From: Pseudonocardia xinjiangensis
Lineage (GTDB): Bacteria; Actinomycetota; Actinomycetes; Mycobacteriales; Pseudonocardiaceae
Direction of reading: 5' to 3'
DNA: 64,000 nucleotides
NCBI RefSeq assembly: GCF_012911925.1
Contig: NZ_JAAXKY010000023.1
Span: 1 to 64,000 of the forward strand
Position numbers and translations under genes: made by a program. The notes beneath the pieces were generated by a model, which was not told the DNA's origin, searched no databases, and saw nothing but the letters and a program-made list of their open reading frames with translations. Of this stretch, positions 23,348-38,593 are shown one piece after another; position 1 is the stretch's first letter, and every line of letters begins with the position of its first letter.

Positions 23348-24865
23348 ATGGCTTGCCCGGCATCTGTTCACGATTTCATCGTCGTCGGCGGAGGTAGTGC
23401 CGGCTGTGTGCTGGCCGCCCGCCTCTCGGAGGACGAGAACGTTCGCGTCCTCCTGCTGGAGGCCGGGGCCGGTCAGCCGTTGGAGGCCTCGGCGGTACCG
23501 CCGGCGTGGCCCACGCTCCTGGGCTCGTCGATGGACTGGTGCACGAGCACCGTCGAGTTGGCTGCCACCGGGTCGCCGATGCCCTGGCCGCGGGGGCGCG
23601 GACTCGGCGGCTGCTCTGCACTGAACGGCATGGTCTTCGCCCGCGGGCATTCCTCGAGCTACGACGCGTGGACCGAGGCGGGGGCGAAGGGATGGGGGTT
23701 CGCCGACCTGCTGCCGTACTTCCGGCGCACCGAGAACGTCGAGGGTCGCGACCCGGCCCTGCGCGGCGTCGGCGGTCCGCTGACCGTCCGGCCGGCGGAG
23801 CCGAACCCGGCGGTGCGGGCGCTGCTGGACGCGGCGGCCGAGGCGGGTCATCCGGTGGCCACCGACATCAGCGGCGGCCGGGAGGAGGGGTTCGGTCTGC
23901 CCGACCTCAACATCGTCGACGGGGCGAGGCAGAGTGCCGCGGACGCCTACCTCCGGCCGGCGCTGCGGCGACCCAACCTCGATGTGGTGACCGATGCGCC
24001 GGTCCACCGGGTCCTCGTCGAGGGCGGCCGCTGCACGGGCGTGGAGTACCGCGTGGGCACCGAGGTGGTCACGGCGGCGTGCACGAGGGAGGTGGTTTTG
24101 ACCGCGGGTGTCGTCGGGTCGGCGCAACTGCTCCTGCTGTCCGGCATCGGTCCCCGGGCACACCTGCGCGAGGTCGGTGTCGACCTGACACTGGACCTCC
24201 CCGGTGTCGGCGCGAACATGCACGACCACCCCATGACGACCGTCGTCTACACCTCGAGGCAGCCGATGGCCGCCAGCGCGATCAACTACGGCGAGGCGAT
24301 CGGTCTCGTGCGCAGCGGTCCCGGCACCGACGGCCCTGACCTGCAGATCCTGTTCGTCGCCATGCCCTACTACGACGTCATGACGCTCCCGGGCCCCCAG
24401 GAGGGCTACACGATCGCGGTCTCGCTGATGAACCCGCGCAGCCGCGGAACGGTGCGGCTGGCCACGGCCGACCCGGCCGCGGCGCCCCTGCTCGACCCCG
24501 CCTACCTCACCGACGAGCGGGACCTGCAGGTGATGGCCCTCGGGCTGCGTACGGCGCGGGAGATCGGCGACGCGCCTGCGCTGGACCCCTGGCGTGACGC
24601 CGAGGCGCTGCCCGGCCTCGACGTGTTCGGCGCCGACCGGACACAGGACTACCTGCGGAGGAGCCTGCTGCCGTACTTCCACGGGGTGGGCACCTGCCGG
24701 ATCGGCTCCGACGACGCGGCGGTCGTGGACAGCGACCTGCGGGTGCACGGGATCGACGGGCTCCGCGTGGCCGATGCGTCCGTGATGCCCTCGATCGTCT
24801 CCGCCAACACCCATGCCACCGTCTACGCCATCGCCGAGCGCGGCGCCGTCCTGCTCACCGGGTGA
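23348..24865 (+). CDS. GMC-family FAD oxidoreductase beside the mycofactocin locus
   Basis: 505 residues. FIVVGGGSAGCVLAARLSE binds the FAD ADP moiety, and PRGRGLGGCSALNGMVF is the GMC signature. The C-terminal pair is in YFHGVGTCRIG (His) and NTHATVYAIAERG, where a second His replaces the more common Asn. Mycofactocin loci commonly carry a GMC dehydrogenase (MftG and relatives) that links mycofactocin to respiration or oxidises alcohols. Position 1.3 kb from mftA suggests that role, but I cannot separate MftG from other GMC types by eye. It is convergent with the DUF952-GNAT gene. Confidence 0.85.
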   Translation: MACPASVHDFIVVGGGSAGCVLAARLSEDENVRVLLLEAGAGQPLEASAVPPAWPTLLGSSMDWCTSTVELAATGSPMPWPRGRGLGGCSALNGMVFARGHSSSYDAWTEAGAKGWGFADLLPYFRRTENVEGRDPALRGVGGPLTVRPAEPNPAVRALLDAAAEAGHPVATDISGGREEGFGLPDLNIVDGARQSAADAYLRPALRRPNLDVVTDAPVHRVLVEGGRCTGVEYRVGTEVVTAACTREVVLTAGVVGSAQLLLLSGIGPRAHLREVGVDLTLDLPGVGANMHDHPMTTVVYTSRQPMAASAINYGEAIGLVRSGPGTDGPDLQILFVAMPYYDVMTLPGPQEGYTIAVSLMNPRSRGTVRLATADPAAAPLLDPAYLTDERDLQVMALGLRTAREIGDAPALDPWRDAEALPGLDVFGADRTQDYLRRSLLPYFHGVGTCRIGSDDAAVVDSDLRVHGIDGLRVADASVMPSIVSANTHATVYAIAERGAVLLTG

Positions 24866-26068: not shown

Positions 26069-26087
26069 ATTGGCACCGGGTGCCAAT
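26069..26087 (+). promoter_or_regulatory. 19-bp perfect palindrome upstream of mftA, probable operator
   Basis: ATTGGCACC-G-GGTGCCAAT has perfect 9-bp arms around one central base, 43 bases upstream of the mftA ATG and inside the divergent promoter region. The symmetry and position are those of a dimeric repressor site. No mftR (TetR) gene is in the window, so the regulator is unidentified. Confidence 0.75.
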
Positions 26088-26129
26088 TAACGTGCGACGG
26101 ACAACCCCGTCGACGGCAGGAGGCCTTCC

Positions 26130-26231
26130 ATGCCCCCGATCGAGCAGTCCGAGTCCGCGACCGAGGAGCCCGTCGTCGAGGAGATGCTCGTCGAGGAGGT
26201 CTCGATCGACGGCATGTGCGGTGTCTACTGA
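26130..26231 (+). CDS. mftA: Mycofactocin precursor peptide
   Basis: A 33-residue ribosomally made precursor with an acidic leader (EEPVVEEMLVEEVS) and the invariant core IDGMCGVY at the C-terminus. The terminal Val-Tyr is decarboxylated and cross-linked by MftC, then released by MftE to give the mycofactocin redox cofactor scaffold. ATG 26130 is preceded by AGGAGG (26118-26123). The mftB gene starts inside its last codons. The family match is unambiguous despite the small size. Confidence 0.97.
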   Translation: MPPIEQSESATEEPVVEEMLVEEVSIDGMCGVY

Positions 26232-26514
26232 CCCCGCCCCGAGCGAACCGTTCGACCCGGACCGCGCCTACCGCTGCAGTCCGCGGGTGGCGCTGCGCCC
26301 CGAGCCGTTCGGGGCGCTCGTCTACCACTTCGGCACCCGCAGGCTGTCGTTCCTGAAGACGCCGCAGCTGGTCGCGGTCGTGTCCGGCCTGGAGCAGCAC
26401 CACTCCGTGCACGCCGCGATCGACGCGGCCGACGTGGAGGACACGCAGCGCCCGGCGTACCTGCGCGCCCTGGCCGGCCTGGCCGCCAACGGCACCATCG
26501 AGCAGCGGTCGTAG
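26221..26514 (+). CDS. mftB: Mycofactocin peptide chaperone
   Basis: A 97-residue PqqD-like RiPP recognition element that binds the MftA leader and delivers it to MftC. Family features are DPDRAYRCSPRVALRPEPFGA, LVYHFGTRRLSFLKTPQL and a C-terminal helix. GTG 26221 lies within the GMCGVY codons of mftA, an 11-base overlap in another frame; this fits the tight coupling usual in these loci. It is followed 15 bases later by mftC. Confidence 0.93.
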   Translation: MSTDPAPSEPFDPDRAYRCSPRVALRPEPFGALVYHFGTRRLSFLKTPQLVAVVSGLEQHHSVHAAIDAADVEDTQRPAYLRALAGLAANGTIEQRS

Positions 26515-26529
26515 AGACACGGAGTCGCA

Positions 26530-27789
26530 GTGAAACTGGTCGAGCACTTCCAGTACGGCCTGAACTCACCGATCTGCCTCACCTGGGAGCTCACCTACGC
26601 CTGCAACCTGGCGTGCGTGCACTGCCTGTCGTCGTCGGGACGCCGGGATCCGCGGGAGCTGACCACCGCAGAGGCCAAGGGCGTGATCGACGAGCTGCAG
26701 CGGATGCAGGTCTTCTACGTCAACATCGGCGGTGGCGAGCCGACCGTGCGCTCCGACTTCTGGGAGCTGCTCGACTACGCGGTCGGCCACGACGTCGGTG
26801 TGAAGTTCTCGACCAACGGGATCAAGCTCGACGAGAAGCGGGCCCGGCAGCTGGCGGCCACCGACTACGTCGACGTCCAGATCTCCCTCGACGGCGCCAC
26901 CGCCGACGTCAACGACCACGTGCGGGGCCCCGGCTCGTACGCCACGGCGATCCGGGCTCTGGAGAACCTCGCGACGGCCGGGTTCGCCCAGCCGAAGATC
27001 AGTGTCGTCATGACGCGGCAGAACGTCGCCCAGCTCGACGAGTTCAAGGCCATCGCGGACAGGTTCGGAGCGCAGCTGCGCATCACCCGGCTGCGGCCGT
27101 CCGGGCGTGGCGCCGACGTCTGGGACGAGCTGCACCCCACCGCGGGGCAGCAGCGTCAGCTCTACGACTGGCTCGTCGCGCACGGCGAGGGTGTGCTGAC
27201 CGGCGACTCCTTCTTCCACCTCTCCGCGTACGGCGAGTCCCTCCCCGGGCTCAACCTGTGCGGCGCCGGGCGCGTGGTCTGCCTGATCGACCCGGTCGGG
27301 GACGTCTACGCGTGCCCGTTCGCCATCCACGAGAACTTCCTCGCGGGCAACGTCCGGTCGCCGGGCGGGTTCCAGCAGGTCTGGCAGCACTCGGAGCTGT
27401 TCGCGCAGCTGCGTCAGCCGCAGACCGGCGGCGCGTGCCGCAGCTGCGGCTTCTACGACTCCTGCCAGGGCGGCTGCATGGCGGCCAAGTTCTTCACCGG
27501 CCTGCCGCTGGACGGTCCGGATCCGGAGTGCGTGCGCGGGTTCGGCGAGGAGGCGCTCGCCGCGCGCGACGGGAGCGCTCCGGTCCCGCGGTCGGACGTC
27601 GACCACTCCCGATCGGCGCCGCGCAACATCCGCGGTCCGGTGCCGGTGCAGATCGGCATGCCGAGCCGGGCCGGTGCCGCCACCGGGCCCGTGGCCCAGC
27701 CGGACCGGGCCTGCGAGACGAGCCCGCTGGCGGGGATGCCCGGCGACGCCTCCGACTCGCGCCTGCGGGTCCCGGTGGCCGGGAGCTGA
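26530..27789 (+). CDS. mftC: Mycofactocin radical SAM maturase
   Basis: 419 residues. The radical SAM cluster ligands are Cys25, Cys29 and Cys32 in CNLACVHC. A SPASM/twitch domain with extra Cys ligands follows (LCGAGRVVCLIDPVGDVYAC, then GACRSCGFYDSCQGGC). MftC oxidatively decarboxylates the MftA C-terminal Tyr and forms the Val-Tyr cross-link, working with MftB. The C-terminal tail ending ACETSPLAG matches the family. GTG 26530 starts the conserved MKLVEHFQYGLNSPICLTWE. The 3' end is about 30 bases from the next gene. Confidence 0.97.
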   Translation: MKLVEHFQYGLNSPICLTWELTYACNLACVHCLSSSGRRDPRELTTAEAKGVIDELQRMQVFYVNIGGGEPTVRSDFWELLDYAVGHDVGVKFSTNGIKLDEKRARQLAATDYVDVQISLDGATADVNDHVRGPGSYATAIRALENLATAGFAQPKISVVMTRQNVAQLDEFKAIADRFGAQLRITRLRPSGRGADVWDELHPTAGQQRQLYDWLVAHGEGVLTGDSFFHLSAYGESLPGLNLCGAGRVVCLIDPVGDVYACPFAIHENFLAGNVRSPGGFQQVWQHSELFAQLRQPQTGGACRSCGFYDSCQGGCMAAKFFTGLPLDGPDPECVRGFGEEALAARDGSAPVPRSDVDHSRSAPRNIRGPVPVQIGMPSRAGAATGPVAQPDRACETSPLAGMPGDASDSRLRVPVAGS

Positions 27790-27818
27790 CCTCGATCCGG
27801 CCCACGTCGCGGGCATCC

Positions 27819-29783
27819 GTGCCACGGCTGGCCGGACCGGTCGTGCTGCGCGGACGCACGGCGCCCAGCCGGGTGCTGTTCGGACCGCACGAGACGAACC
27901 TGGCGTGGCGCCGGGAGATCTCCGAGCGGCACGCCGCCTACTACGCCCGGCGGGCCGCCGGTGGGGCCGGGGTGATCGTCACCGAGGTGGCGAGCGTGCA
28001 CGGGTCGGACTGGCCCTACGAGCGGGCGCCGCTCGCCGCCGACGCCGGGCCCGGCTGGGCCGCGGTCGCGCAGGCGTGTCGCCCGTACGGCTCGCTCGTG
28101 CTCGCCGGGCTCGGGCACGCGGGCGGGCAGGGCAGCTCCGCGTACGGGCAGCAGGCGCTCTGGGCGCCGTCCGGGGTGGCCGACCCCGGCACCCGCGAGG
28201 TGCCGATGGTGGTCGAGCAGCCCGAGATCGACGCGCTGGTCGCCGGCTACGGCGCGGCGGCAACCTCCGCCGTGTCCGCGGGACTGGACGGCGTGGAGGT
28301 CGCCGCCGGCCAGCACTCGATCCTGCGCCAGTTCCTGTCCGGGCTCACCAACCGCCGCCGCGACACCTACGGCGCCGACCGCGTCCGCCTGCTCCGGGAG
28401 GTGCTGGCGGCGGTGCGGGCCGGCCTCGGCGCGGACGGCGTGCTGGGGCTGCGGCTGTGCTGCGACGAGCTGGCCCCATGGGCCGGGATCACACCGGAGC
28501 AGGGGACCGCGGTGGCCGGTGCGGTCGCCGGGACCGCCGACTACCTGGTGCCGGTTCGTGGGTCGGGCCTGTCGGTCTGGGCGACCCGCCCCGACATGCA
28601 CGAGGAGCCCGGCTTCAACCGCGGGCTCTGCGCGCGGGTGCGCACCGCCGTGGCCGTCCCCGTCGTCCTGCAGGGCAGCGTGGTGGACCCGGCGTTCGCG
28701 CAGCAGGCCCTCGACCAGGGCGTCGCCGATCTCGTCGAGATGACGAGAGCGCAGATCGCCGAACCGGACCTGGTGAGGCACGTCCGGGCCGGGACGGCGG
28801 AGCGGATCCGACCGTGCACGCTGTCGAACGCGCGCAGCGCGGTCCGCGACCCGCGCAACCCGGTCGTCTCCGACGACGCCGAGCCCCGTGCCGGGCACGA
28901 GACCGAGGACCCGCCCGTCGAGGGCACCGACGCCGTGAGCCGCGCCGCCGTCGTGGTCGGTGGGGGACCGGCCGGGATGGAGGCGGCGCGCGTGCTGGCG
29001 CTGCGCGGGCACCGGGTGCGCCTCCTCGAGCGGGACGGCCGGCTCGGCGGCGCGCTGCGGCTCGCCGCCGCGGTGCCCGGCCGGGCCCGGATGGGTCTGC
29101 TCGTGCCGTGGTGGGAGCGCGAGCTGGCGCGCCTGGGGGTCGCCGTGGAGCTGGGCGCCGAGGCCGATCCGGCGCTGCTCGACGCGGCCGGGCGCGCGGG
29201 AGAGGCGGTGCTGCTCGCCACCGGTTCGCGCCCGGCGCAGTCGCCGATCGGGGGGCCGGCCGTCCTCGACGCCGTCTTCCTCGACGCCGCCGCCTTCGAG
29301 TCCGCGGTGCTGGCGGCCGGGTCGACGGCGGCGGTGCTGGCGCGCCGGCCCGCCGGGACGGTGGTGGTGCACGACCCGGTCGGGGACTCGACCGGCGTCG
29401 GGATCGCCGAGCAGGTCGCGGCCGCGGGACGGGCCGCCGTCCTCGTCACCCCGGACCAGGTGGCCGGGGTCCAGCTGGCCCGCACCGGCGACCTCGTCCC
29501 GGCGAACATCCGGTTGCAGCGCGCGGGGGTGGTGCGGGAGCTGCGCACGCGGCTGCTCGACGTGCGCGACGGGCGGGCGGTGCTGGAGCACGTCTGGACC
29601 GGCGCGTGCCGCGAGATCGGCTGCGCGGTGGTCATCGACTGCGGCCACCGGCTGCCCGCCGACGAGCTGTGGCGGGCCCGGCCGCAGCTGCGGCGGGCCG
29701 GGGACTGCGTCGCGCCCCGCACGGTGCACGAGGCCGTGCTCGAGGGCCGCCGTGCCGCGTTCATGGTCGGCGCATCAGGATGA
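27819..29783 (+). CDS. Mycofactocin-system FadH/OYE-family oxidoreductase, type 1
   Basis: 654 residues. An N-terminal Old Yellow Enzyme TIM barrel (about 10-335; QFLSGLTNRRRDTYG is characteristic) is followed by a FAD/NAD-binding half starting with AAVVVGGGPAGMEAARVLAL, the 2,4-dienoyl-CoA reductase (FadH) layout. In FadH relatives a 4Fe-4S cluster links the halves, but here the junction (RPCTLSNARSAVRDPRN) keeps only one Cys, so that cluster is probably missing. GTG 27819 is the first in-frame start after mftC. It sits where mftD normally lies and overlaps the next OYE gene by ATGA. Confidence 0.87.
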   Translation: MPRLAGPVVLRGRTAPSRVLFGPHETNLAWRREISERHAAYYARRAAGGAGVIVTEVASVHGSDWPYERAPLAADAGPGWAAVAQACRPYGSLVLAGLGHAGGQGSSAYGQQALWAPSGVADPGTREVPMVVEQPEIDALVAGYGAAATSAVSAGLDGVEVAAGQHSILRQFLSGLTNRRRDTYGADRVRLLREVLAAVRAGLGADGVLGLRLCCDELAPWAGITPEQGTAVAGAVAGTADYLVPVRGSGLSVWATRPDMHEEPGFNRGLCARVRTAVAVPVVLQGSVVDPAFAQQALDQGVADLVEMTRAQIAEPDLVRHVRAGTAERIRPCTLSNARSAVRDPRNPVVSDDAEPRAGHETEDPPVEGTDAVSRAAVVVGGGPAGMEAARVLALRGHRVRLLERDGRLGGALRLAAAVPGRARMGLLVPWWERELARLGVAVELGAEADPALLDAAGRAGEAVLLATGSRPAQSPIGGPAVLDAVFLDAAAFESAVLAAGSTAAVLARRPAGTVVVHDPVGDSTGVGIAEQVAAAGRAAVLVTPDQVAGVQLARTGDLVPANIRLQRAGVVRELRTRLLDVRDGRAVLEHVWTGACREIGCAVVIDCGHRLPADELWRARPQLRRAGDCVAPRTVHEAVLEGRRAAFMVGASG

Positions 29784-31774
29784 CGCTCTTCTCGCCACTG
29801 CGGGTGGGGCCGTTGACGCTGCCCACCCGGATCGTGTTCTGCGCGCATCTGACGGGCAGCGCGCTCGACGGGCTGCCCACCGAGCAGCACGCCGCCTACT
29901 ACGCGGCACGTGCCGCGGGCGGGGCCGGGTTGATCGTCACCGAGGAGCACTCGGTGCACCCGGACGACCGGCCCTACGAGAAGCTGCTGCGCGGGCACGA
30001 TCCGGCCGCCGTGCCCGGCTACCGGCGGCTCACCGCGGCCGTGCACGCCCACGGCGTCCCGGTGCTCGCGCAGCTCAACCACAACGGCGCGCAGTCGTCG
30101 GGGATGTACTCGCGACGGCCGCTGTTGGCGCCGTCGCCGGTGGCCGACCCGCTGTTCCGCGAGGTCCCGAAGGAGATCACGGCAGCGGAGATCCGCGAGG
30201 TCGTGGCCGGATACGCGCGCACCGCGGGCCACTGCGCCGCCGGCGGCTTCGACGGGGTCGAGATCCAGTGCTCGCAGGCGTCGCTGCTGCGGCAGTTCCT
30301 CTCCCCGCTCACGAACCGGCGCACCGACCGCTACGGCGGTGACCTGGCCGGGCGGGCCCGGATCGTCCTGGAGGTGCTCGCCGCGGTGCGCGAGGCGATC
30401 GGCCCGCGGCGCGCGCTCGGGGTGCGGCTCTGCGGTGACGAGGGGATCCCCGGCGGCACGACGCTCGCCGAGGCCGTGGCCACGGCCCGGCTGCTGGCCG
30501 CGGACGGCCGGGTCGACTACCTGAACACCTCGGTCGGCGTCGCGACCGCCACGCTGCACCTGGTCGAGCCGCCGATGCCGGTGCGTGCCGGGTACGCGCT
30601 GCCCGTCGCGGCCGCGATCCGGGCGGCCGTCGCGCTGCCGGTGGTGGGGGTCGGCCGGTTCACCGATCCCGCCGACGCCGCCCGCGCGCTGGCCGAGGGC
30701 CACTGCGACCTGGTGGGGGTCGTCCGGGGACAGATCGCCGACCCGGAGTTCGCCGCGCACGCCCGCAGCGGACGGCCGGGCCGCACGTGCGTGGGGTGCA
30801 ACCAGGAGTGCGCCGGGCGGGTGGGGCTCAACCAGCCGCTGGGGTGCCTGGTGAACCCGCGGGCGGGGCAGGAGGCGGTGGCGCTGCCCCCGCCCCGCAT
30901 CCCCCGCGAGTCGCCCGTTTCCGGCGCGCGAGTCGCCGAAATTCCGTGGGCGAGTCGCCCGTTGCGGCGCGGCCGGGCCGTCCTCGTCGTCGGCGGGGGC
31001 CCCGCCGGGCTCAGCGCCGCGGCCACCGCGGCGGCGCGGGGGCACCGGGTGACGTTGTGCGAGCGCGAACAGCGGACAGGCGGGCAGGTGGCGGTGGCCG
31101 CATCGACGCCGGGGCGAGCCGGGTTCGGGGCGGTGGTGAGTGACCTGCTCGCCGAGTGCGACGGGGTCGACATCCGCACCGGCGTCACCGTGGACGCCGC
31201 GTTCGTCGAGCGCGAGCGGCCCGACGCCGTGGTGCTCGCGACCGGCGCCCGCCCGGCCCGTCCGGCGTGGGCCGGGTCGCTTGCGCGCGTCGCCGACGTG
31301 CGGGACGTGCTGACCGGCCGCGTGGTGCCGACGGGCTCCGTGCTCGTGTACGACGAGCTGGGCTTCCACCCGGCCACCTCCGTGGCCGAGCACCTCGCGG
31401 CGGCCGGCTGCGCGGTGGAGATCGCCACTCCGGCGATGGTGGTCGGCCAGGACCTCGGCCTGACACTCGACATGGAGCTGTTCCACCGCCGTGCGCACGC
31501 CGCCGGGATCACGATGACCACCGACCGGGTCGTGCTCGCCGCGGCGCCCGCCCGGTCCGGCGTGATGCTCACCGTGCTCGACCACGCCGTCGATGCCGTC
31601 AGCGAGATCGGGTACGCCTGGGTCGTGACCGCCGTACCACCGGAACCGGAGGACGCGCTGTGGCGGGCGCTGCGCGGGCAGGACGTTCCGGTGCACCGGA
31701 TCGGCGACTGCCTCGCCCCGCGCCGGGCCGCCGCCGCCGTCCGTGAGGGCCACCGCATCGGAGTCGCGCTGTGA
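29780..31774 (+). CDS. Mycofactocin-system FadH/OYE-family oxidoreductase, type 2
   Basis: 664 residues: an OYE barrel (about 1-335; QFLSPLTNRRTDRYGG), an intact cluster motif RTCVGCNQECAGRVGLNQ plus a later Cys, then a FAD-binding domain (VLVVGGGPAGLSAAATAAARG). It would transfer hydride between a nicotinamide or flavin donor and an enone or enoyl substrate; the link to mycofactocin is by location. Between the Fe-S region and the FAD domain the DNA contains a GCGAGTCGCC repeat in frame (30906-30963). The ATG overlaps the previous stop, and the stop overlaps the mftE GTG. Confidence 0.88.
   Translation: MTLFSPLRVGPLTLPTRIVFCAHLTGSALDGLPTEQHAAYYAARAAGGAGLIVTEEHSVHPDDRPYEKLLRGHDPAAVPGYRRLTAAVHAHGVPVLAQLNHNGAQSSGMYSRRPLLAPSPVADPLFREVPKEITAAEIREVVAGYARTAGHCAAGGFDGVEIQCSQASLLRQFLSPLTNRRTDRYGGDLAGRARIVLEVLAAVREAIGPRRALGVRLCGDEGIPGGTTLAEAVATARLLAADGRVDYLNTSVGVATATLHLVEPPMPVRAGYALPVAAAIRAAVALPVVGVGRFTDPADAARALAEGHCDLVGVVRGQIADPEFAAHARSGRPGRTCVGCNQECAGRVGLNQPLGCLVNPRAGQEAVALPPPRIPRESPVSGARVAEIPWASRPLRRGRAVLVVGGGPAGLSAAATAAARGHRVTLCEREQRTGGQVAVAASTPGRAGFGAVVSDLLAECDGVDIRTGVTVDAAFVERERPDAVVLATGARPARPAWAGSLARVADVRDVLTGRVVPTGSVLVYDELGFHPATSVAEHLAAAGCAVEIATPAMVVGQDLGLTLDMELFHRRAHAAGITMTTDRVVLAAAPARSGVMLTVLDHAVDAVSEIGYAWVVTAVPPEPEDALWRALRGQDVPVHRIGDCLAPRRAAAAVREGHRIGVAL
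30906..30963 (+). repeat. Triple GCGAGTCGCC repeat inside the OYE-2 gene
   Basis: GCGAGTCGCCCGTT (30906-30919), GCGAGTCGCC (30928-30937) and GCGAGTCGCCCGTT (30950-30963) occur within 58 bases. The third forms a GGGCGAGTCGCCC near-palindrome. It encodes an extra linker (ESPVSGARVAEIPWASRPL) in frame. It looks like a dispersed REP-type element inserted in a coding region. Confidence 0.6.
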
Positions 31775-32475
31775 ACCCTTCCGCCGGCTCGCTGGGCAGC
31801 CGCACCTGGACCGAGCTGGAGGGGCGGCCCACGCTTCTCGTCCCCGTCGGGTCGCTGGAGCAGCACGGCCCGCACCTGCCGCTGGACACCGACGCCCGCG
31901 TCGCCGCCGCCGTCGCCCGCCGCGCTGCCGACGCAGCGCCGGGTGTGCTGGTGGCGCCCGTGCTGGCCTTCGGCGCGTCGGGCGAGCACGAGGCGTTCCC
32001 CGGGACGCTCTCCATCGGGCACGAGGCGCTGCGCGCGGTGCTGGTCGAGCTGGGCCGCTCGGCCGGCCGCTGGGCCGCTCGGCTGGTGTTCGTCAACGGC
32101 CACGGCGGCAACCTCCCCACCGTCGCCGACGCCGTGGTGCAGTTGCGCGCCGAAGGTCGGGACGCGGCGTGGTTCGGCTGCGGCGTGGCGGGCGGCGACG
32201 CCCACGCCGGCCGCACCGAGACGTCGCTGCTGCTCGCACTGGCCCCCGGGCTCGTCCGTCTCGACGAGGCGGCGGCGGGCAACACCGCCCCGCTCACCGA
32301 CCTGCTCACCGACCTGCGCAGCGGCGGCGTCGCCGCCGTGAGCCCGAACGGCGTGCTGGGCGACCCGGCCGGCGCCACCGCGCAGGAGGGCGGGCGGCTG
32401 CTGACGGAGATGGCCGCCCGCCTCCGCAGCGCCGTCGAGAACTGGACCCTGACCTCCCGAGGCGCGCTGAGCTGA
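31771..32475 (+). CDS. mftE: Mycofactocin peptidase, creatininase family
   Basis: A 234-residue metal-dependent peptidase that releases the cross-linked C-terminal dipeptide (AHDP) from MftC-modified MftA. Creatininase-fold metal ligands appear in PVGSLEQHGPHLPLDTD (Glu, His, Asp), FGASGEHEAFPGTLS, FVNGHGGN and AGRTETS (Glu). GTG 31771 overlaps the OYE-2 stop (GTGA), so it is coupled to the upstream genes. A large inverted repeat follows about ten bases after the stop and may end this transcriptional segment. Confidence 0.95.
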   Translation: MNPSAGSLGSRTWTELEGRPTLLVPVGSLEQHGPHLPLDTDARVAAAVARRAADAAPGVLVAPVLAFGASGEHEAFPGTLSIGHEALRAVLVELGRSAGRWAARLVFVNGHGGNLPTVADAVVQLRAEGRDAAWFGCGVAGGDAHAGRTETSLLLALAPGLVRLDEAAAGNTAPLTDLLTDLRSGGVAAVSPNGVLGDPAGATAQEGGRLLTEMAARLRSAVENWTLTSRGALS

Positions 32476-32485
32476 CCTCCCCCGG

Positions 32486-32542
32486 GTTGCAGCAAAGCCA
32501 CTTTGACGCGACGTGGCTGCATGAAAGTGGCTTTGCTGCAAC
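32486..32542. repeat. Inverted repeat, 19-bp perfect arms
   Basis: GTTGCAGCAAAGCCACTTT (32486-32504), a 19-base loop, then AAAGTGGCTTTGCTGCAAC (32524-32542). It lies in the gap between mftE and the phosphodiesterase gene. The composition is less GC-rich than its surroundings. It could act as a terminator or be a dispersed intergenic palindromic element. Confidence 0.85.
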
Positions 32543-32576
32543 GGGCGGCCGGGGTCCGGGGCGCCCCCGCGGTGCG

Positions 32577-33743
32577 ATGCTGGAGGTCGTGACCGATCCC
32601 GTCCTGCCCGTGTACGGGCACCGTTCGCTCGCCGAAGTGCTGCCCGCTCTGCTCACCGCGCTCGGTGTGCCCGGCGAGGCACCCGGGCAGCCGGGCCTGG
32701 AGCTCGCCCCGGCCCCGGCCGTCGCGTTGTTGCTGGTCGACGGGCTCGGCAGCGAACTCCTCCGCACGCACGCCGCCGACGCGCCGTTCCTCGCGAGCCT
32801 GTCCGACGCCGGCCCGCTCACGGTCGGCTTCCCGTCCAGCACGTCGATCAGCCTCACCTCGCTGGGCACCGGCCTGCCACCGGGCGCGCACGGCATGCTC
32901 GGCATCTCCTTCCGCACTGCTCCCGACGAGCTGCTCGACACCCTCCAGTGGCGGTCGGTCGGGACGCCGGAGCCCGTCGACCTGCGGGAGCGGCGGCCGC
33001 CCGAGGAGATCCAGCCGAGCACCACGGTGTTCGAGCGGGCGGCGGCCGCGGGCGTCGAGGTCACGGTGGTGTCGAAGGCGGAGTTCGGCGGTTCGGGCCT
33101 CACCCGCGCGGCGCTGCGCGGCGGGCGGTACGCGGGCACGTACGCGCTCGGTGACCTCGCCGCCGAGATGATCGGCGCGCTCGCGGGCCAAGGCAGGCGG
33201 CTGGTCTACGGCTACCACGCCGACCTCGACGCCCTGGGTCACCTGTACGGACCGGGGACGCTGCCGTGGCGGCTGCAGCTGAGCCAGGTCGACCGGCTGG
33301 CCGCGCTGGTCGCCGAGCATCTCCCGCCCGACGGGATGCTGGTGGTGACCGGCGACCACGGGATGGTCCGGGTCGACCGGGTCGTCGACGCCGACACCGA
33401 CCCGGCGCTGCGCTCCGGCGTCGACCTGCTGGGCGGCGACCCCCGGTCGCGGCACGTCTACGTGCAGCCCGGCGCCCAGGACGACGTGCTGGCCGTGTGG
33501 CGAGCGGTCCTCGGCGACGGCGCCTGGGTCGTACCGGGCGAGCAGGCCGTCGCCGAAGGCTGGTTCGGGCGGGTCGACCAGCGCATGCGCAACCGGATCG
33601 GGGACGTCGTGGTCGCCGCCCGCGGCGGCACGGCCGTGGTCCGCTCGGTGGCCGAGCCCGTGCTCGCGGGCCTGCCGGGCCAGCACGGCTCCCTCACCGT
33701 GGCCGAGCAGGTCGTGCCGCTGCTGGTCGCGCGCCCGGCCTGA
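32577..33743 (+). CDS. Alkaline-phosphatase-fold nucleotide pyrophosphatase/phosphodiesterase
   Basis: 388 residues of the type I phosphodiesterase/nucleotide pyrophosphatase family. Metal and nucleophile motifs are ALLLVDGLG (Asp), FPSSTSISLTSLGTG (Thr/Ser nucleophile region), YGYHADLDALGHLYG (Asp, His) and VVTGDHGM (Asp, His). No signal peptide is seen, so it is probably cytoplasmic. It lies between mftE and mftF. A role in processing a nucleotide-activated sugar, F420-like or mycofactocin phosphodiester intermediate is possible but unproven. ATG 32577 is preferred over GTG 32589. Confidence 0.85.
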   Translation: MLEVVTDPVLPVYGHRSLAEVLPALLTALGVPGEAPGQPGLELAPAPAVALLLVDGLGSELLRTHAADAPFLASLSDAGPLTVGFPSSTSISLTSLGTGLPPGAHGMLGISFRTAPDELLDTLQWRSVGTPEPVDLRERRPPEEIQPSTTVFERAAAAGVEVTVVSKAEFGGSGLTRAALRGGRYAGTYALGDLAAEMIGALAGQGRRLVYGYHADLDALGHLYGPGTLPWRLQLSQVDRLAALVAEHLPPDGMLVVTGDHGMVRVDRVVDADTDPALRSGVDLLGGDPRSRHVYVQPGAQDDVLAVWRAVLGDGAWVVPGEQAVAEGWFGRVDQRMRNRIGDVVVAARGGTAVVRSVAEPVLAGLPGQHGSLTVAEQVVPLLVARPA

Positions 33744-33788
33744 CCGCCTCACCGCGGCGGTGCCCCTGGCCGTGACACGATCGGCGCC

Positions 33789-35240
33789 GTGATCGAGGTA
33801 CCCGCCGGCCCGGCCCGGACGCGCCTTCCCGCGGGGTTCCGGATCGCCCTCGACCGGAGGGTGTGGACGGTCGACGACGGCGAGGTCATGTTCGGGGGCG
33901 CGCCGCCGCGCATGCTGCGCCTCGCCCGGGCGGCCCGGGACCTGCTCGCCGCGGACGGCACCTGCACCGTCGCCGACGAGGCCTCGGCACGGCTGGCCCG
34001 GGCTCTGGTGGACGCCGGGATGGCCCACCCGGTGGCCGTTCCCGACGGTGACGTGCCGTCCGCCTGCGACGTCACCGTGGTGGTGCCGGTGAAGGACCGC
34101 GCCGACGGCCTGCGCCGGCTCCTCGCCGCTCTGCCCGGCGGCCTGGGTGGCGTGATCGTCGTGGACGACGGGTCGGTGGACGCGGACGGGGTCGGCGGGG
34201 TCGCCGACGCCGCCGGTGCGCGGGTGCTCCGTCACGAGCGGCCGCTCGGCCCGGCCGCAGCCCGCAACGCGGGGCTCGCCGCGGCGACCACTGCGCTGGT
34301 GGCGTTCCTCGACTCCGATGTGGTGCCCCTGCCCGGCTGGCTGGAGCCGCTGCTGGCGCTCTTCGCCGATCCCGCTGTCGGGCTCGCGGCGCCGCGGATC
34401 GTCGCCCTGCCCCCGGGACCCCTGTCGCGGATCGACGGGCTGCTGGCCCGGTACGAGGCCGTCCGGTCATCGTTGGACCTGGGTCCGGACCCGGCGCTGG
34501 TGGTGCCGCGCTCGCGCGTCGCGTACGTGCCGAGCGCCGCCGTGCTCGTGCGCCGCACCGCGGTCGGGCCCGGTTTCGACGACGGGATGCGGGTGGCCGA
34601 GGACGTCGACCTGGTGCTGCGCATGCACGAGGCCGGCTGGCGGCTGCGCTACGAGCCGGCCGCTCGGGTGGAGCACGACCACCGGACCACGCCGGCGGCG
34701 TGGTGGCTGCGCAAGGCCTACTACGGCACGGGTGCGGCGCCGCTCGCCGTGGCGCACCCCGGTTCCGTGCCGCCGATGGTGCTCAGCCCGTGGTCGGCGG
34801 CAGTCGGGGCGCTGGTGCTGGTTGGCACCCCGTGGTCAGCGGCTGCTGCGGTGGCGGTGAGCGCTGCGGCGGCGCAGCGGCTGGCGCGGAAGCTGCCGGT
34901 GCGCCGTCCGCGCGCCACGGCGGCCCGGCTGATCGCGATGGGTGCGGTGGGCACGGTGGCACAGACGGCCGACGGCGTGACGCGGCACTACTGGCCCGTG
35001 TCGCTCGCCGCGTGCCTGCTGTCGCGGCGGGCGCGGCGCACGGTGGCGGCCGTGGCGGTGGCGGAGGGCATCGTCGACTGGTGGCGCCACCGCGGCCGGG
35101 ACGCGTCCGTGCGACCAGGGCTGCTCGGGCACCTGGTGGCGCACCGGCTCGACGACCTGGCGTACGGCACCGGCCTGTGGTGGGGCGCACTGCGGCACCG
35201 CACGACGGAACCGCTCCGGCCGGTCGGTACGGGGTCGTAG
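33789..35240 (+). CDS. mftF: Mycofactocin glycosyltransferase
   Basis: 483 residues. An N-terminal PqqD/wHTH-like region (about 1-90) precedes a GT-A family 2 domain with TVVVPVKDRADGL, VIVVDDGS and the DxD motif at 175-177 (FLDSDV), plus the EDVDLVLRMHEAGW acceptor motif. Hydrophobic helices in the C-terminal third (about 330-420) suggest membrane association. MftF adds beta-1,4-glucose chains to premycofactocin in mycobacteria. GTG 33789 begins MIEVPAGPARTRLPAGF. It is the last gene of the mft locus, 46 bases after the phosphodiesterase. Confidence 0.94.
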   Translation: MIEVPAGPARTRLPAGFRIALDRRVWTVDDGEVMFGGAPPRMLRLARAARDLLAADGTCTVADEASARLARALVDAGMAHPVAVPDGDVPSACDVTVVVPVKDRADGLRRLLAALPGGLGGVIVVDDGSVDADGVGGVADAAGARVLRHERPLGPAAARNAGLAAATTALVAFLDSDVVPLPGWLEPLLALFADPAVGLAAPRIVALPPGPLSRIDGLLARYEAVRSSLDLGPDPALVVPRSRVAYVPSAAVLVRRTAVGPGFDDGMRVAEDVDLVLRMHEAGWRLRYEPAARVEHDHRTTPAAWWLRKAYYGTGAAPLAVAHPGSVPPMVLSPWSAAVGALVLVGTPWSAAAAVAVSAAAAQRLARKLPVRRPRATAARLIAMGAVGTVAQTADGVTRHYWPVSLAACLLSRRARRTVAAVAVAEGIVDWWRHRGRDASVRPGLLGHLVAHRLDDLAYGTGLWWGALRHRTTEPLRPVGTGS

Positions 35241-35596: not shown

Positions 35597-36115
35597 ATGG
35601 CACAGGTCCGGGTCACGGTCGACGGCGTGGTGTACGCCGACGACGTCGAGCCCCGCACGTTGCTGGTCCACTATCTGCGGGAACGCCTCGGCAAGACGGG
35701 CACCCTGGTCGGGTGCGACACCAGCAACTGTGGAGCCTGCACCGTCCACCTGAACGGGCAGAGTGTGAAGTCCTGTTCCGTGCTGGCCGTCCAGGTCGAT
35801 GGTGCCGAGGTCACGACGATCGAGGGCATCGCGCGTGACGGCAAGCTGCACCCCGTGCAGGAAGCCTTCAACGAGTGCCACGCGCTGCAGTGCGGCTACT
35901 GCACGCCGGGGATGATCATGCAGTCCATCGACCTGCTCGGGGACAACCCCGACCCCAACGAGCAGGAGGTGCGCGAGGGCATCGAGGGCAACCTCTGTCG
36001 CTGCACCGGGTACCAGAACATCGTCCGCGCCGTCCAGAGCGCCGCGGAGAAGATGAAGCCGGGCGCCCAGGCCGACGTGCAGTCGCCGGTGTCCGTGGCC
36101 GGAGGGGGCGACTAG
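35597..36115 (+). CDS. 2Fe-2S small subunit of molybdenum hydroxylase, operon 2
   Basis: 172 residues with two [2Fe-2S] domains: ligands in [16 protein letters not shown] and VKSC (N-terminal) and in [10 protein letters not shown] and [10 protein letters not shown] (C-terminal). ATG 35597 follows GAGGAGAG. It is adjacent to the large-subunit ATG (TAG then ATG at 36116). This subunit relays electrons from the Mo cofactor to the FAD subunit. It closely resembles its counterpart in operon 1, suggesting related complexes with different gene orders. Confidence 0.95.
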
Positions 36116-38593
36116 ATGACCGCGACCGCCGAACCCACCGTCGAGTTCGGAAAGGCCCGACCCCGCAAGGAGGACGCCCGTCTCATCACGGGCCGCAGCC
36201 GCTACACCGACGCCATCACGCCGTCGGGCACCTTGCACATCGCCGTTGTCCGCTCACCGCTCGCGCACGCGACGATCACGGGCGTCGACAAGTCCGAGGC
36301 CGAGCAGGCTCCGGGTGTCGTCGGCGTCTACACGGCCGCCGACCTGGGCCTCGAGGGGGTCGGCCTACCTTGCGCGTGGCCGGTCACCCCGGACATGAAG
36401 GCGCCGCAGCGTCCCGTGCTCGCCACCGGCACCGTGCACTTCGCCGGTGAGGGCGTGGCCGTCATCGTCGCCCGGAGCCCCGCCGAGGCCCGCGACGCCG
36501 CCGACCTCGTCGAGATCGACTACGAGCCGCTCGACCCCGTGCTCGACATGGAGGCCGCACTCGCCGACGGCGCCACCCTCGTCCACCCCGACCTGGGGAC
36601 GAACGAGAACGCCACCTGGGTGTTCGACTCGGGCGAGGCCGGCACCGGCACGAGTGTCAGCGACGCGATCTCGGCTGCCGAGGCCGACCCCGACCAGGTG
36701 GTCGTGCGGCGCCGGTTCCGCCAGCAGCGCCTGATCCCGGCGTTCATGGAGCCGCGGTCCGCGGTGTGCGACCCGACCGGCGAGCAGATCACCCTCTACG
36801 CGGCCACCCAGGTGCCGCACATCCTCCGGACGATGACGACGGTCACGCTGGGGGTGCCCGAGAGCAAGCTGCGGGTCATCGCCCCGGACGTGGGTGGCGG
36901 CTTCGGCGGCAAGATCGGTGTGCTGCCCGAGGAGATGCTCGTCGTCGCACTCGCGCAGAAGCTGGGCAAGCCCGTCAAGTGGAGCGAGACGCGCTCGGAG
37001 TCGCTGCTCGCCGCCCACCACGGCCGCGACCAGATCCAGGACATCACGATCACGGCGAAGAAGGACGGCACGGTCACCGGCCTGGACGTCAAGCTACTGG
37101 CCGACATGGGTGCCTACCTCGGCCTGGTCGGTCCGGGCGTGCCGATCCTCGGCGCGTTCATGTTCAACGCGATCTACAAGTTCCCGGCCTACAGGTTCAC
37201 GTGCACCAACGTCTTCACCACGAAGACACTGACCGACGCCTACCGCGGCGCCGGGCGGCCGGAGGCCACGTTCGCCGTCGAGCGGATCATGGACGAGCTC
37301 GCCGTCGAGCTCGGCCGCGACCCGATGGAGCTGCGCGAGCAGAACTGGATCAAGCACGAGGAGTTCCCGTTCACCACGGTGTGCGGGCTGACCTACGACT
37401 CGGGCAACTACGAGCAGGCCACGCAGCAGGCGATGGAGCTGTTCGACTACGCCGGGCTGCGCCGCGAGCAGGAGGAGCGGCGGCGCAACAACGACCCGGT
37501 ACAGCTCGGGATCGGCATCTCGACGTTCACCGAGATGTGCGGTCTCGCGCCCTCGCGGGTGCTGGGTTCGCTGTCCTACGGCGCGGGCGGCTGGGAGGCC
37601 GCGAGCATCCGGATGCTCGCCACCGGCAAGGTCGAGGTGATCACGGGCGCATCGGCGCACGGCCAGGGCCACGAGACGGCGTTCAGCCAGATCGTCGCCG
37701 ACCAGCTGGGCGTGCCGTTCGAGGACGTCGAGGTCCTGCACGGCGACACGCAGATCTCACCGAAGGGCCTCGACACCTACGGCTCGCGCTCGCTCGTGGT
37801 CGGTGGCATCGCGATCGTGAAGGCCGCCGACAAGGTCATCGCGAAGGCCAAGAAGATCGCGGCGCACCTGCTCGAGGCGTCCGAGGACGACATCGAGTTC
37901 GCGGGTGGCAACTTCACCGTCCGCGGCACGGACAAGGGCAGGTCGATCCAGGAGATCGCGTTCGCCGCGTTCATGGCGCACGACTACCCGGAGGACATGG
38001 AGCCCTCGCTCGACTCCGACGCCGTGTACGACCCGGAGAACTTCTCGTTCCCGCACGGCACGCACCTGGCGGCCATCGAGATCGACACCGAGACCGGGCA
38101 CGTCGACCTGCGCAAGTACGTCTGCGTTGACGACATCGGCAACGTGGTCAACCCGCTCATCGTCGAGGGCCAGGTGCACGGCGGCCTCGCCCAGGGCATC
38201 GCGCAGGCGCTGTTCGAAGAGGCCAACTACGACGACCAGGGCACGCTGGTCAACGGCACGTTCGTCGACTACACGCTGCCCTCGGCGGCCGACCTGCCGA
38301 GCTTCGACACCCGCACGGTGAGCACCCCGGCCACGTCGAACCCGCTCGGCGTCAAGGGCGTCGGCGAGGCGGGCACGATTGCCTCGACGCCCGCGATCGT
38401 GAACGGCGTGCTCGACGCGCTGCGCCACCTCGGCGTCCGCGACGTCGAGATGCCGTGCACGTCGCAGCGCGTGTGGCGGGCACTCCAGGACGCACAGGGG
38501 CGTTCCACCCAGGAGACCCCGGTCGACACCCACTCGCCGGGTGCCGGTCTGGGCTCGATCGACCCGAACAACCCTCAGGGAGAGGTCCAGTGA
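36116..38593 (+). CDS. Molybdenum hydroxylase large subunit (form II CO dehydrogenase-like), operon 2
   Basis: 825 residues. The active-site loop is AYRGAGR (375-381), the form II type lacking the Cys of CO dehydrogenase. Catalytic Glu751 is in GVGEAG. Moco segments DVGGGFGGK, GASAHGQGHETAF and GSRSLVVGG are present. Form II enzymes oxidise diverse substrates such as aldehydes, nicotine-like heterocycles or carboxylates; no clear substrate clue exists here. The stop overlaps the FAD-subunit GTG (GTGA at 38590-38593). It is about 60 residues longer than the operon 1 protein. Confidence 0.94.
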   Translation: MTATAEPTVEFGKARPRKEDARLITGRSRYTDAITPSGTLHIAVVRSPLAHATITGVDKSEAEQAPGVVGVYTAADLGLEGVGLPCAWPVTPDMKAPQRPVLATGTVHFAGEGVAVIVARSPAEARDAADLVEIDYEPLDPVLDMEAALADGATLVHPDLGTNENATWVFDSGEAGTGTSVSDAISAAEADPDQVVVRRRFRQQRLIPAFMEPRSAVCDPTGEQITLYAATQVPHILRTMTTVTLGVPESKLRVIAPDVGGGFGGKIGVLPEEMLVVALAQKLGKPVKWSETRSESLLAAHHGRDQIQDITITAKKDGTVTGLDVKLLADMGAYLGLVGPGVPILGAFMFNAIYKFPAYRFTCTNVFTTKTLTDAYRGAGRPEATFAVERIMDELAVELGRDPMELREQNWIKHEEFPFTTVCGLTYDSGNYEQATQQAMELFDYAGLRREQEERRRNNDPVQLGIGISTFTEMCGLAPSRVLGSLSYGAGGWEAASIRMLATGKVEVITGASAHGQGHETAFSQIVADQLGVPFEDVEVLHGDTQISPKGLDTYGSRSLVVGGIAIVKAADKVIAKAKKIAAHLLEASEDDIEFAGGNFTVRGTDKGRSIQEIAFAAFMAHDYPEDMEPSLDSDAVYDPENFSFPHGTHLAAIEIDTETGHVDLRKYVCVDDIGNVVNPLIVEGQVHGGLAQGIAQALFEEANYDDQGTLVNGTFVDYTLPSAADLPSFDTRTVSTPATSNPLGVKGVGEAGTIASTPAIVNGVLDALRHLGVRDVEMPCTSQRVWRALQDAQGRSTQETPVDTHSPGAGLGSIDPNNPQGEVQ

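What the first reader, a model, noticed from the sequence alone, without database searches (positions are those of the whole stretch)
26069..35240. Mycofactocin locus without mftD, carrying two OYE-type flavoproteins and a phosphodiesterase
mftA, B, C, E and F are all clear, but the FMN-dependent mftD (which oxidises AHDP to premycofactocin) is missing from its usual place between mftC and mftE. Two coupled FadH/OYE oxidoreductase genes occupy that place, and an alkaline-phosphatase-fold gene separates mftE from mftF. Either mftD is elsewhere in the genome, or one of the flavoproteins replaces its oxidation step, or the end product differs from mycobacterial mycofactocin. The OYE pair may be the client enzymes that use the cofactor.
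Basis: partly seen in the sequence, partly recalled or inferred. Interest (0 to 1): 0.75.

Follow-up and report, generated by a model that had tools for sequence, protein, structure and literature searches.

The report
Mycofactocin locus with mftD elsewhere
A soil bacterium (apparently Pseudonocardia) makes the redox cofactor mycofactocin with a gene cluster whose seemingly missing enzyme gene simply sits elsewhere in the genome, while the two extra flavoprotein genes in its place look like a paired accessory complex, one half of which has lost its iron-sulphur cluster in this genus.

Summary
The window holds mftA, B, C, E, F, with two FadH/OYE genes (NCBIfam mycofactocin OYE_1 and OYE_2) between mftC and mftE and a PF01663 hydrolase between mftE and mftF. 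mftD is not missing: an intact copy (715 bits, cut-off 471) lies on another contig. In the window's genus it is away from mftC in 54 of 55 sampled genomes holding both, with or without the OYE genes, so the pair does not replace it here. OYE-bearing clusters without mftD are already in print for Saccharopolyspora.

What looks new is the pair itself. OYE_1 and OYE_2 share one reading frame in about nine distinct loci. OYE_1 lacks two presumed FMN-site residues in 115 of 115 sequences and, in Pseudonocardia, also the four-cysteine [4Fe-4S] motif (28 of 28 distinct). OYE_2 keeps them wherever readable. 40 of 80 related loci add mycofactocin-type ETF genes, and four Frankiales-type genomes have OYE plus ETF and no mftD found. 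I infer an accessory two-subunit flavoprotein exchanging electrons with mycofactocin. Replacement of mftD remains possible in that other clade.

The parts
26130..26231 (+). mftA, precursor peptide ending IDGMCGVY
   Evidence: TIGR03969 51.2 bits, cut-off 25; the only match in the genome
26221..26514 (+). mftB, peptide chaperone
   Evidence: TIGR03967 111.3 bits, cut-off 33; GTG start chosen by me
26530..27789 (+). mftC, radical SAM maturase
   Evidence: TIGR03962 656.9 bits, cut-off 265; only one over the cut-off in the genome
27819..29783 (+). OYE_1, mycofactocin system FadH/OYE family oxidoreductase 1 (degenerate subunit)
   Evidence: TIGR03996 816.8 bits, cut-off 627.9; start uncertain (27819 or 27873)
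28815..28874 (+). remnant of the [4Fe-4S] loop in OYE_1: C333, S336, S340, D352 in place of four Cys
   Evidence: ungapped alignment with E. coli FadH 1ps9 at this place and 115 OYE_1 sequences
29780..31774 (+). OYE_2, mycofactocin system FadH/OYE family oxidoreductase 2 (presumed catalytic subunit)
   Evidence: TIGR03997 910.3 bits, cut-off 793.15; overlaps the end of OYE_1 by four bases
30788..30847 (+). intact four-Cys [4Fe-4S] loop of OYE_2 (C337, C340, C344, C356)
   Evidence: alignment with 1ps9; 107 of 107 OYE_2 readable at this place keep it, one further row is a gap
31771..32475 (+). mftE, creatininase-family peptidase
   Evidence: TIGR03964 323.6 bits, cut-off 172
32487..32541 (+). 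perfect inverted repeat, 18-base arms, between mftE and the hydrolase
   Evidence: 0 of 100 shuffles had two matches
32589..33743 (+). PF01663 phosphodiesterase/nucleotide pyrophosphatase-type hydrolase
   Evidence: Pfam 100.2 bits, cut-off 23; on the strand opposite to mftE in 23 of 23 genus loci where it was matched
33789..35240 (+). mftF, glycosyltransferase
   Evidence: TIGR03965 487.8 bits, cut-off 280

Best explanation
This is a complete mycofactocin pathway with a dispersed mftD and an accessory flavoprotein pair. Shown: the locus encodes MftA, B, C, E and F, and MftD is encoded on another contig. Established (literature): MftC decarboxylates and cyclises the Val-Tyr end of MftA, MftE frees AHDP, MftD oxidises it to premycofactocin, MftF glycosylates it. 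Inferred: OYE_1 and OYE_2 form one two-subunit enzyme. OYE_2, with intact FMN-site and [4Fe-4S] residues, is the catalytic half. OYE_1, without the FMN-site residues and in this genus without the cluster, is a structural or FAD/nucleotide-binding half. The complex exchanges electrons with the mycofactocin pool (most likely re-oxidising reduced mycofactocin or a partner dehydrogenase). In many relatives the acceptor is a dedicated ETF plus a FixC-like quinone reductase encoded in the same locus. In the window's organism, which has no mycofactocin-type EtfB over the cut-off, the acceptor would be a general ETF or NAD(P).
For: Intact mftD at 715 bits on G000:C238. In the genus sample mftD is away from mftC in 54 of 55 genomes with both: 17 on the same contig at about 146 kb or more, 37 on another contig (counted by hand). 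It does not depend on OYE_1. The OYE_1 match is beside mftC in 34 of 35 genus genomes that have it, in the other on a separate contig. OYE_1-OYE_2 in one open frame in 10 loci, about 9 distinct. OYE_1 FMN-site Gln and Arg absent in 115 of 115, OYE_2 keeps both in 108 of 108. OYE_1 Fe-S Cys lost in 28 of 28 distinct Pseudonocardia sequences, one clade, support 1.0. OYE_1 dN/dS 0.19-0.30 in five pairs, like OYE_2, so not decaying. etfA after OYE_2 in 40 of 80 related loci.
Against: No biochemical data. The heterodimer is inferred from fusions and overlapping genes only. The electron-flow direction is a guess; FadH relatives reduce rather than oxidise. OYE_1 has no match in 25 of 60 genus genomes (3 of these also show no mftC), so it is not essential. 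In 9 of 80 named OYE_1 loci no mftC was matched in the stretch fetched, some of them cut short by the contig end. Five of the seven Rhodococcus/Prescottella loci have both the OYE pair and a GMC (MftG-like) gene, so the pair is not simply an MftG substitute. The own genome also has a GMC gene just over the MftG cut-off (402.6 against 387.45 bits).
Confidence: 0.6

Rival explanations
1. The OYE pair (with ETF and FixC where present) is a non-orthologous replacement for MftD: an amine-dehydrogenase-type flavoenzyme that oxidatively deaminates AHDP and hands the electrons to ETF.
For: Four genomes of one family (G068 100% complete, G112 91%, G120 90%, G162 84%) have mftC, OYE_1, OYE_2 and mft_etfB over its cut-off, and an unchanged IDGMCGVY core in the 3 loci where it was read, but no mftD over the cut-off (best TIGR03966 matches 137-147 bits, in pieces). 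The OYE_1 model's best folds are histamine dehydrogenase, HisD amine oxidase, NCR and TMADH. Saccharopolyspora clusters lack mftD and carry TIGR03997, yet S. erythraea is reported to make methylated mycofactocin (PMC11162802).
Against: In the window's genus mftD is kept whether or not the pair is present. Rhodococcus and Prescottella have both side by side. ETF-bearing Pseudonocardia G013 and G032 also have mftD. The mftD-less genomes are one family, so perhaps one event, and three of the four are incomplete assemblies. By sequence FadH is the closest solved relative of both proteins.
Confidence: 0.2
2. The OYE pair are ordinary client ene-reductases that use mycofactocin or NAD(P)H to reduce an unrelated substrate, and sit in the locus for co-regulation.
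For: FadH/OYE superfamily membership; FadH is the best sequence match in PDB; mycofactocin-coupled SDR genes lie between OYE_1 and OYE_2 in L075 and L086.
Against: The position of FadH's active-site Tyr is Ser or Ala in all 115 OYE_1 and 108 OYE_2 sequences aligned. The fusions and the ETF/FixC genes point to a dedicated electron-transfer role.
Confidence: 0.15
3. OYE_1 in Pseudonocardia is a decaying gene with no function.
For: Loss of three or four of the cluster cysteines and of FMN-site residues.
Against: Full-length frame in the window, dN/dS 0.19-0.30 in five pairs, fused to OYE_2 in some species, matched in 35 of 60 genomes, 30 of them over the family cut-off.
Confidence: 0.05

Closest known systems
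Mycofactocin (mft) biosynthesis locus of Mycobacterium (Haft 2011, PMC3023750)
   Same: mftA, B, C, E, F families all over their curated cut-offs; MftA core IDGMCGVY
   Different: mftD is on another contig; OYE pair and a PF01663 hydrolase are interposed
mftD-less, TIGR03997-bearing mycofactocin clusters of Saccharopolyspora (BGCFlow, PMC11162802)
   Same: No mftD in the cluster, an OYE_2 gene present, MftA ends IDGMCGVY
   Different: The section read compares clusters and reports no genome-wide mftD search; here mftD was looked for and found elsewhere. The Saccharopolyspora loci fetched here also carry ETF and FixC-like genes, the window does not
NCBIfam mycofact_OYE_1 (TIGR03996) and mycofact_OYE_2 (TIGR03997)
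   Same: Both genes are members above cut-off
   Different: Pseudonocardia OYE_1 has lost the [4Fe-4S] cysteines that 61 of 76 other distinct OYE_1 keep in full
Trimethylamine and histamine dehydrogenases, 2-naphthoyl-CoA reductase, E. coli FadH
   Same: FMN domain, Fe-S loop and nucleotide-binding domain in one chain of similar length; Foldseek best hits of OYE_1
   Different: Two diverged chains, one without FMN-site residues; no FadH Tyr
MftG, mycofactocin dehydrogenase (PMC11778925)
   Same: Proposed role of linking reduced mycofactocin to respiration; about a quarter of mftC genomes are reported to lack MftG, with the substitute unknown
   Different: Unrelated family (GMC); OYE pair and GMC genes coexist in Rhodococcus loci

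Membership tests
Mycofactocin biosynthetic system | MftA with conserved C-terminal IDGMCGVY | tested here: met
Mycofactocin biosynthetic system | MftB, MftC, MftE, MftF over curated cut-offs | tested here: met
Mycofactocin biosynthetic system | MftD encoded in the genome | tested here: met
   715 bits against 470.85, unlinked
Mycofactocin biosynthetic system | mftD inside the cluster, as in Mycobacterium | tested here: not met
   also not met in 54 of 55 genus genomes that have both genes
Mycofactocin biosynthetic system | Product is glycosylated premycofactocin | not testable with these tools
   needs mass spectrometry
TIGR03996 mycofact_OYE_1 | Score over curated cut-off | tested here: met
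   816.8 against 627.9
TIGR03997 mycofact_OYE_2 | Score over curated cut-off | tested here: met
   910.3 against 793.15
FadH-type 2,4-dienoyl-CoA reductase (OYE_1) | Four-Cys [4Fe-4S] motif | tested here: not met
   C333, S336, S340, D352
FadH-type 2,4-dienoyl-CoA reductase (OYE_2) | Four-Cys [4Fe-4S] motif | tested here: met
FadH-type 2,4-dienoyl-CoA reductase (both) | Active-site Tyr (role recalled) | tested here: not met
   Ser in the window's OYE_1 and OYE_2; Ser or Ala in all sequences aligned
TMADH/HDH-type amine dehydrogenase delivering to ETF (trait recalled) | Dedicated ETF partner encoded nearby | tested here: not met
   OYE_2 and mftE overlap, so no ETF gene lies between them; no mft_etfB over cut-off in the genome (best 77.8 bits, cut-off 200). 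mft_etfA was not sought genome-wide. Met for etfA in 40 of 80 related loci
TMADH/HDH-type amine dehydrogenase delivering to ETF (trait recalled) | Oxidative deamination activity | not testable with these tools
   needs enzyme assay
Replacement of MftD by the OYE pair (in the window's organism) | mftD absent where the OYE pair is present | tested here: not met

The most novel reading that the evidence does not exclude
There are two routes to premycofactocin. Besides MftD, an OYE_1/OYE_2 amine-dehydrogenase complex coupled to a dedicated ETF and a FixC-like quinone reductase carries out the oxidative deamination of AHDP in lineages without mftD (the Frankiales-type clade, perhaps Saccharopolyspora). 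In Pseudonocardia, where mftD was kept or regained at a distant site, the complex has been stripped down: most loci have no ETF and OYE_1 has lost its Fe-S cluster, leaving a heterodimer with one catalytic and one degenerate half that now serves the mycofactocin redox pool.
Probability: 0.2. Interest if true: 0.75.

Novelty: new variant of a known kind. Interest (0 to 1): 0.45.

Why it matters
It shows that an OYE-bearing mycofactocin cluster without mftD need not be an mftD-less pathway: in Pseudonocardia mftD is simply elsewhere, which also bears on the Saccharopolyspora clusters in print. It gives the unstudied OYE_1 and OYE_2 families testable assignments: one complex, one catalytic half, a lineage-specific loss of the Fe-S cluster, and ETF/FixC as the likely electron outlet in half of the related loci. 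That touches the open question, stated in PMC11778925, of what does MftG's job in the genomes that lack it. The Frankiales-type genomes with no mftD found are a natural test of whether a second enzyme can make premycofactocin.

Tried and rejected
Considered and rejected: a second complete mft locus (only one mftA and one mftC over the cut-off); mftD as part of a conserved neighbourhood elsewhere (its neighbours on C238 are sugar-transport, kinase and GH65 genes, and none is shared with more than 4 of 18 other mftD loci); the hydrolase as a conserved mft-operon enzyme (it was matched in 23 genus loci and is on the strand opposite to mftE in all 23; it was not matched in L092, L125 and L140); loss of ETF as the cause of OYE_1 cluster loss (P. 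acidicola, L123/L144, has ETF and a degenerate OYE_1; Amycolatopsis L199, L204, L215 and Geodermatophilus show no ETF in the locus but keep four Cys).

Weak or faulty pieces: the coxS query began one base late (35598 instead of 35597), so every coxS match is not to be used; coxL is unaffected. The OYE_2 dN/dS for L123 against L125 is invalid (L125 ends before OYE_2). The OYE_2 model (mean pLDDT 73.5, 335-396 below 50) gives good full-length Foldseek E-values but TM only about 0.5, so its ranking is not used. The fourth cysteine of OYE_1 was read one column off; correct it. 'Pseudonocardia' is my own grouping: genus-handle loci plus titles, with one record titled Pseudonocardiales (L146). One search (mycofactocin with ETF gene names) listed 10 of 235 papers, none of the 10 holding the word mycofactocin, and settles nothing.
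Full report
WHAT IS THERE. The window carries a mycofactocin locus on the + strand: mftA 26130-26231, mftB 26221-26514, mftC 26530-27789, OYE_1 27819-29783, OYE_2 29780-31774, mftE 31771-32475, a PF01663 hydrolase 32589-33743 and mftF 33789-35240. All but the hydrolase score over the curated cut-off of their NCBIfam family; the hydrolase passes the Pfam gathering score.

mftD IS ELSEWHERE. The own genome (7.76 Mb, 308 contigs, 99.34% complete) has one match over the cut-off to the MftD family: G000:C238:25688-26842, 715 bits over positions 1-385 of 385, cut-off 470.85, no stop; scanned as a protein its best family is pre-mycofactocin synthase MftD. It lies about 23 kb or more from either end of its contig and the locus about 26 kb or more from the ends of C155 (lengths), so the two are at least about 49 kb apart. 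Its neighbours are an L-fucose permease-like gene, a PfkB kinase, a GH65 protein, an aminotransferase and prfC. There is one mftA and one mftC over the cut-off. So the locus is not an mftD-less pathway; mftD is unlinked.

A GENUS-WIDE TRAIT. In a sample of 60 genomes of the genus, mftC is over the cut-off in 57 and mftD in 56; 55 have both. By hand from those tables, mftD lies beside mftC only in G017; in 17 genomes both are on one contig, about 146 kb (G059) or more apart; in the other 37 they are on different contigs, which in fragmented assemblies is weaker evidence. OYE_1 is matched in 35 of 60, 30 of them over its cut-off; in 34 of the 35 it is beside mftC, in G023 on a separate contig. 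mftD is over the cut-off in 34 of the 35 with OYE_1 and in 21 of the 22 that have mftC without OYE_1; the exceptions G023 and G028 are highly fragmented assemblies. Synteny around mftD is not conserved.

WIDER DISTRIBUTION. In 111 genomes of the order, mftC is present in 57 and mftD over the cut-off in 51. By hand, OYE_2 lies within about 15 kb of mftC in 14 genomes (11 of them over its cut-off), and none of these 14 has mftD beside mftC (three have it 41-48 kb away). Of the 43 mftC genomes without such an OYE_2, 29 have mftD within 10 kb, 10 have it on another contig or far away and 4 could not be judged (fragments or no full match). Against a strict either-or rule: 7 of 80 named OYE_1 loci, all Rhodococcus or Prescottella, read mftC-mftD-OYE_1-OYE_2. 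Four genomes of one family, G068, G112, G120 and G162 (completeness 100, 91, 90, 84%), have mftC, OYE_1 and OYE_2 and no mftD: their best TIGR03966 matches are 137-147 bits, in pieces. One of them shares a contig of 21,401 bases with a record titled Frankiales bacterium. Their MftA, read in 3 of the 4 loci, still ends IDGMCGVY.

ETF GENES. In these four genomes the genes between OYE_2 and mftE are mft_etfA (NF038209), a FixC-like FAD oxidoreductase and mft_etfB (TIGR04503): scanned in L080 (all three) and L074 (etfA, etfB), the FixC-like protein below the cut-offs of its families, and matched by tblastn in all four loci. In 80 mftC-bearing genomes searched, mft_etfB is over the cut-off in 5: these four and Pseudonocardia G032 (24 of the 57 mftC-bearing genus genomes were in that list). 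The window's genome has only a generic match of 77.8 bits (cut-off 200). In four loci of another family (L075-L077, L079) a stretch matching only the C-terminal part of mft_etfA lies after OYE_2 (L075 scored 110 bits, cut-off 240). G013 and G032, which have ETF, also have mftD.

THE OYE PAIR. (a) OYE_1 and OYE_2 lie in one uninterrupted reading frame in 10 loci, about 9 distinct (L135 and L161 are the same contig by length), in Pseudonocardia, Frankia and another family. That suggests they act together (inference). (b) Against E. coli FadH (1ps9) both align through the flavin and Fe-S parts. OYE_2 keeps all four cluster cysteines in 107 of 107 readable sequences (one further row has a gap there). 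OYE_1 keeps all four in 61 of 76 distinct sequences outside Pseudonocardia, three in 14, none in one distant outlier; inside Pseudonocardia 23 of 28 distinct sequences keep one and 5 keep none. A tree built without the loop puts all 28 in one clade with support 1.0, so one loss at its base is the simplest account (rooting on one distant sequence). (c) A Gln and an Arg that FadH has at its FMN site (role recalled, positions) are kept in 108 of 108 OYE_2 and in 0 of 115 OYE_1. The FadH active-site Tyr (role recalled) is Ser or Ala throughout both. The nucleotide-binding GxGxxG is intact in both wherever readable. (d) dN/dS of OYE_1 is 0.19-0.30 in five Pseudonocardia pairs, similar to OYE_2 (one OYE_2 value there is invalid). 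OYE_1 is therefore kept by selection, not decaying. (e) The OYE_1 model (mean pLDDT 76) matches histamine dehydrogenases, HisD amine oxidase, 2-naphthoyl-CoA reductase, TMADH and FadH over its whole length; by sequence FadH comes first. (f) In 71 of 80 named loci mftC was matched upstream in the fetched stretch; in 9 it was not (counted by hand), so the pair can occur without mftC close by.

HOW IT PROBABLY WORKS. Biosynthesis is standard: MftC, MftE, MftD (from the distant gene), MftF, as summarised in PMC11778925 (passages). The OYE pair is accessory: a heterodimer in which OYE_2 does flavin/Fe-S chemistry and OYE_1 is a degenerate half, exchanging electrons with the mycofactocin pool, in many relatives through a dedicated ETF and FixC to quinone. 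Shown: gene content, residue losses, fusions, co-location. Inferred: complex, direction, partner. PMC11778925 states that about 25% of mftC genomes lack MftG and that it is open whether other enzymes complement it; the OYE-ETF-FixC module is a candidate, but 5 of the 7 Rhodococcus/Prescottella loci carry both OYE and GMC genes, so it is not a simple swap.

PRIOR ART. Haft 2011 (PMC3023750; outline with abstract and three passages) says the MftD family occurs in most but not all species with the cluster; the word search found no OYE or FadH in that text. BGCFlow (PMC11162802; passages and section 28) reports 17 Saccharopolyspora clusters with TIGR03997 and without mftD and notes that S. erythraea makes methylated mycofactocin; the section reports no search for mftD outside the clusters. 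PMC8406134 was read in passages only. In the held library I found no paper joining mycofactocin with 'electron transfer flavoprotein' (none) and only two with TIGR03997, TIGR03996 or 'mycofactocin system FadH' (BGCFlow, and PMC7913881, seen in listings only). Two papers hold both mycofactocin and Pseudonocardia (listing only, not opened). Further searches were seen as listings apart from the papers named. The methyltransferase paper (PMC9679996) is not held.

VERDICT. The headline anomaly is ordinary: mftD is in the genome. The pair of flavoproteins belongs to known NCBIfam families, but I found no description, in the searches, of its pairing, fusion, ETF coupling or the genus-specific loss of the Fe-S cluster in one partner. 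The idea that OYE replaces MftD is not supported for this organism and open for the mftD-less clade.

Noticed in passing
23348-24865 and 15628-17142: Two GMC-family oxidoreductases near the locus score 322 and 359 bits to MftG, below its cut-off of 387; a third, on another contig (C292), scores 402.6, just over it. The gene at 23348 has a 73% identical counterpart upstream of the mft locus in P. alaniniphila.
   Followed up: partly
32589-33743: The PF01663 hydrolase is on the same strand as mftE here but on the opposite strand in 23 of 23 genus loci where it was matched, as if this gene had been inverted in the window's lineage.
   Followed up: partly
32487-32541: Perfect hairpin with 18-base arms between mftE and the hydrolase; a 16-base part of the arm also occurs in 5 of 221 fetched loci, which come from only about two genomes.
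   Followed up: partly
30906-30960: A GC-rich repeat-like stretch (GCGAGTCGCC motif, partly repeated) lies in frame inside OYE_2, between its Fe-S loop and its FAD domain, in a linker modelled with low confidence.
   Followed up: no
35597-39441: Genes for a three-subunit molybdenum hydroxylase (CO/glyceraldehyde/xanthine dehydrogenase-like, all below family cut-offs) follow mftF, a CoxG-like gene comes after them, and the large subunit follows mftF in many Pseudonocardia loci.
   Followed up: partly
10784-14468: A second molybdenum hydroxylase operon of the same kind lies in the window, upstream of the mft locus.
   Followed up: no
L075:9322-10988, L086:8733-11301: In two other families mycofactocin-coupled SDR genes (TIGR03971 over cut-off) sit between OYE_1 and OYE_2.
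   Followed up: partly
L075:14895-15434 and the same place in L076, L077, L079: A stretch matching only the C-terminal part of the mycofactocin-type EtfA follows OYE_2.
   Followed up: partly
L164, L172, L180, L188, L194, L201, L206, L210, L212: OYE_1 loci, several of them Frankia or Pseudofrankia, with no mftC matched in the fetched stretch; three of these Frankia loci have OYE_1 and OYE_2 in one frame.
   Followed up: no
G059 (genus sample): One genome has two mftC genes about 0.5 Mb apart and two mftD genes.
   Followed up: no
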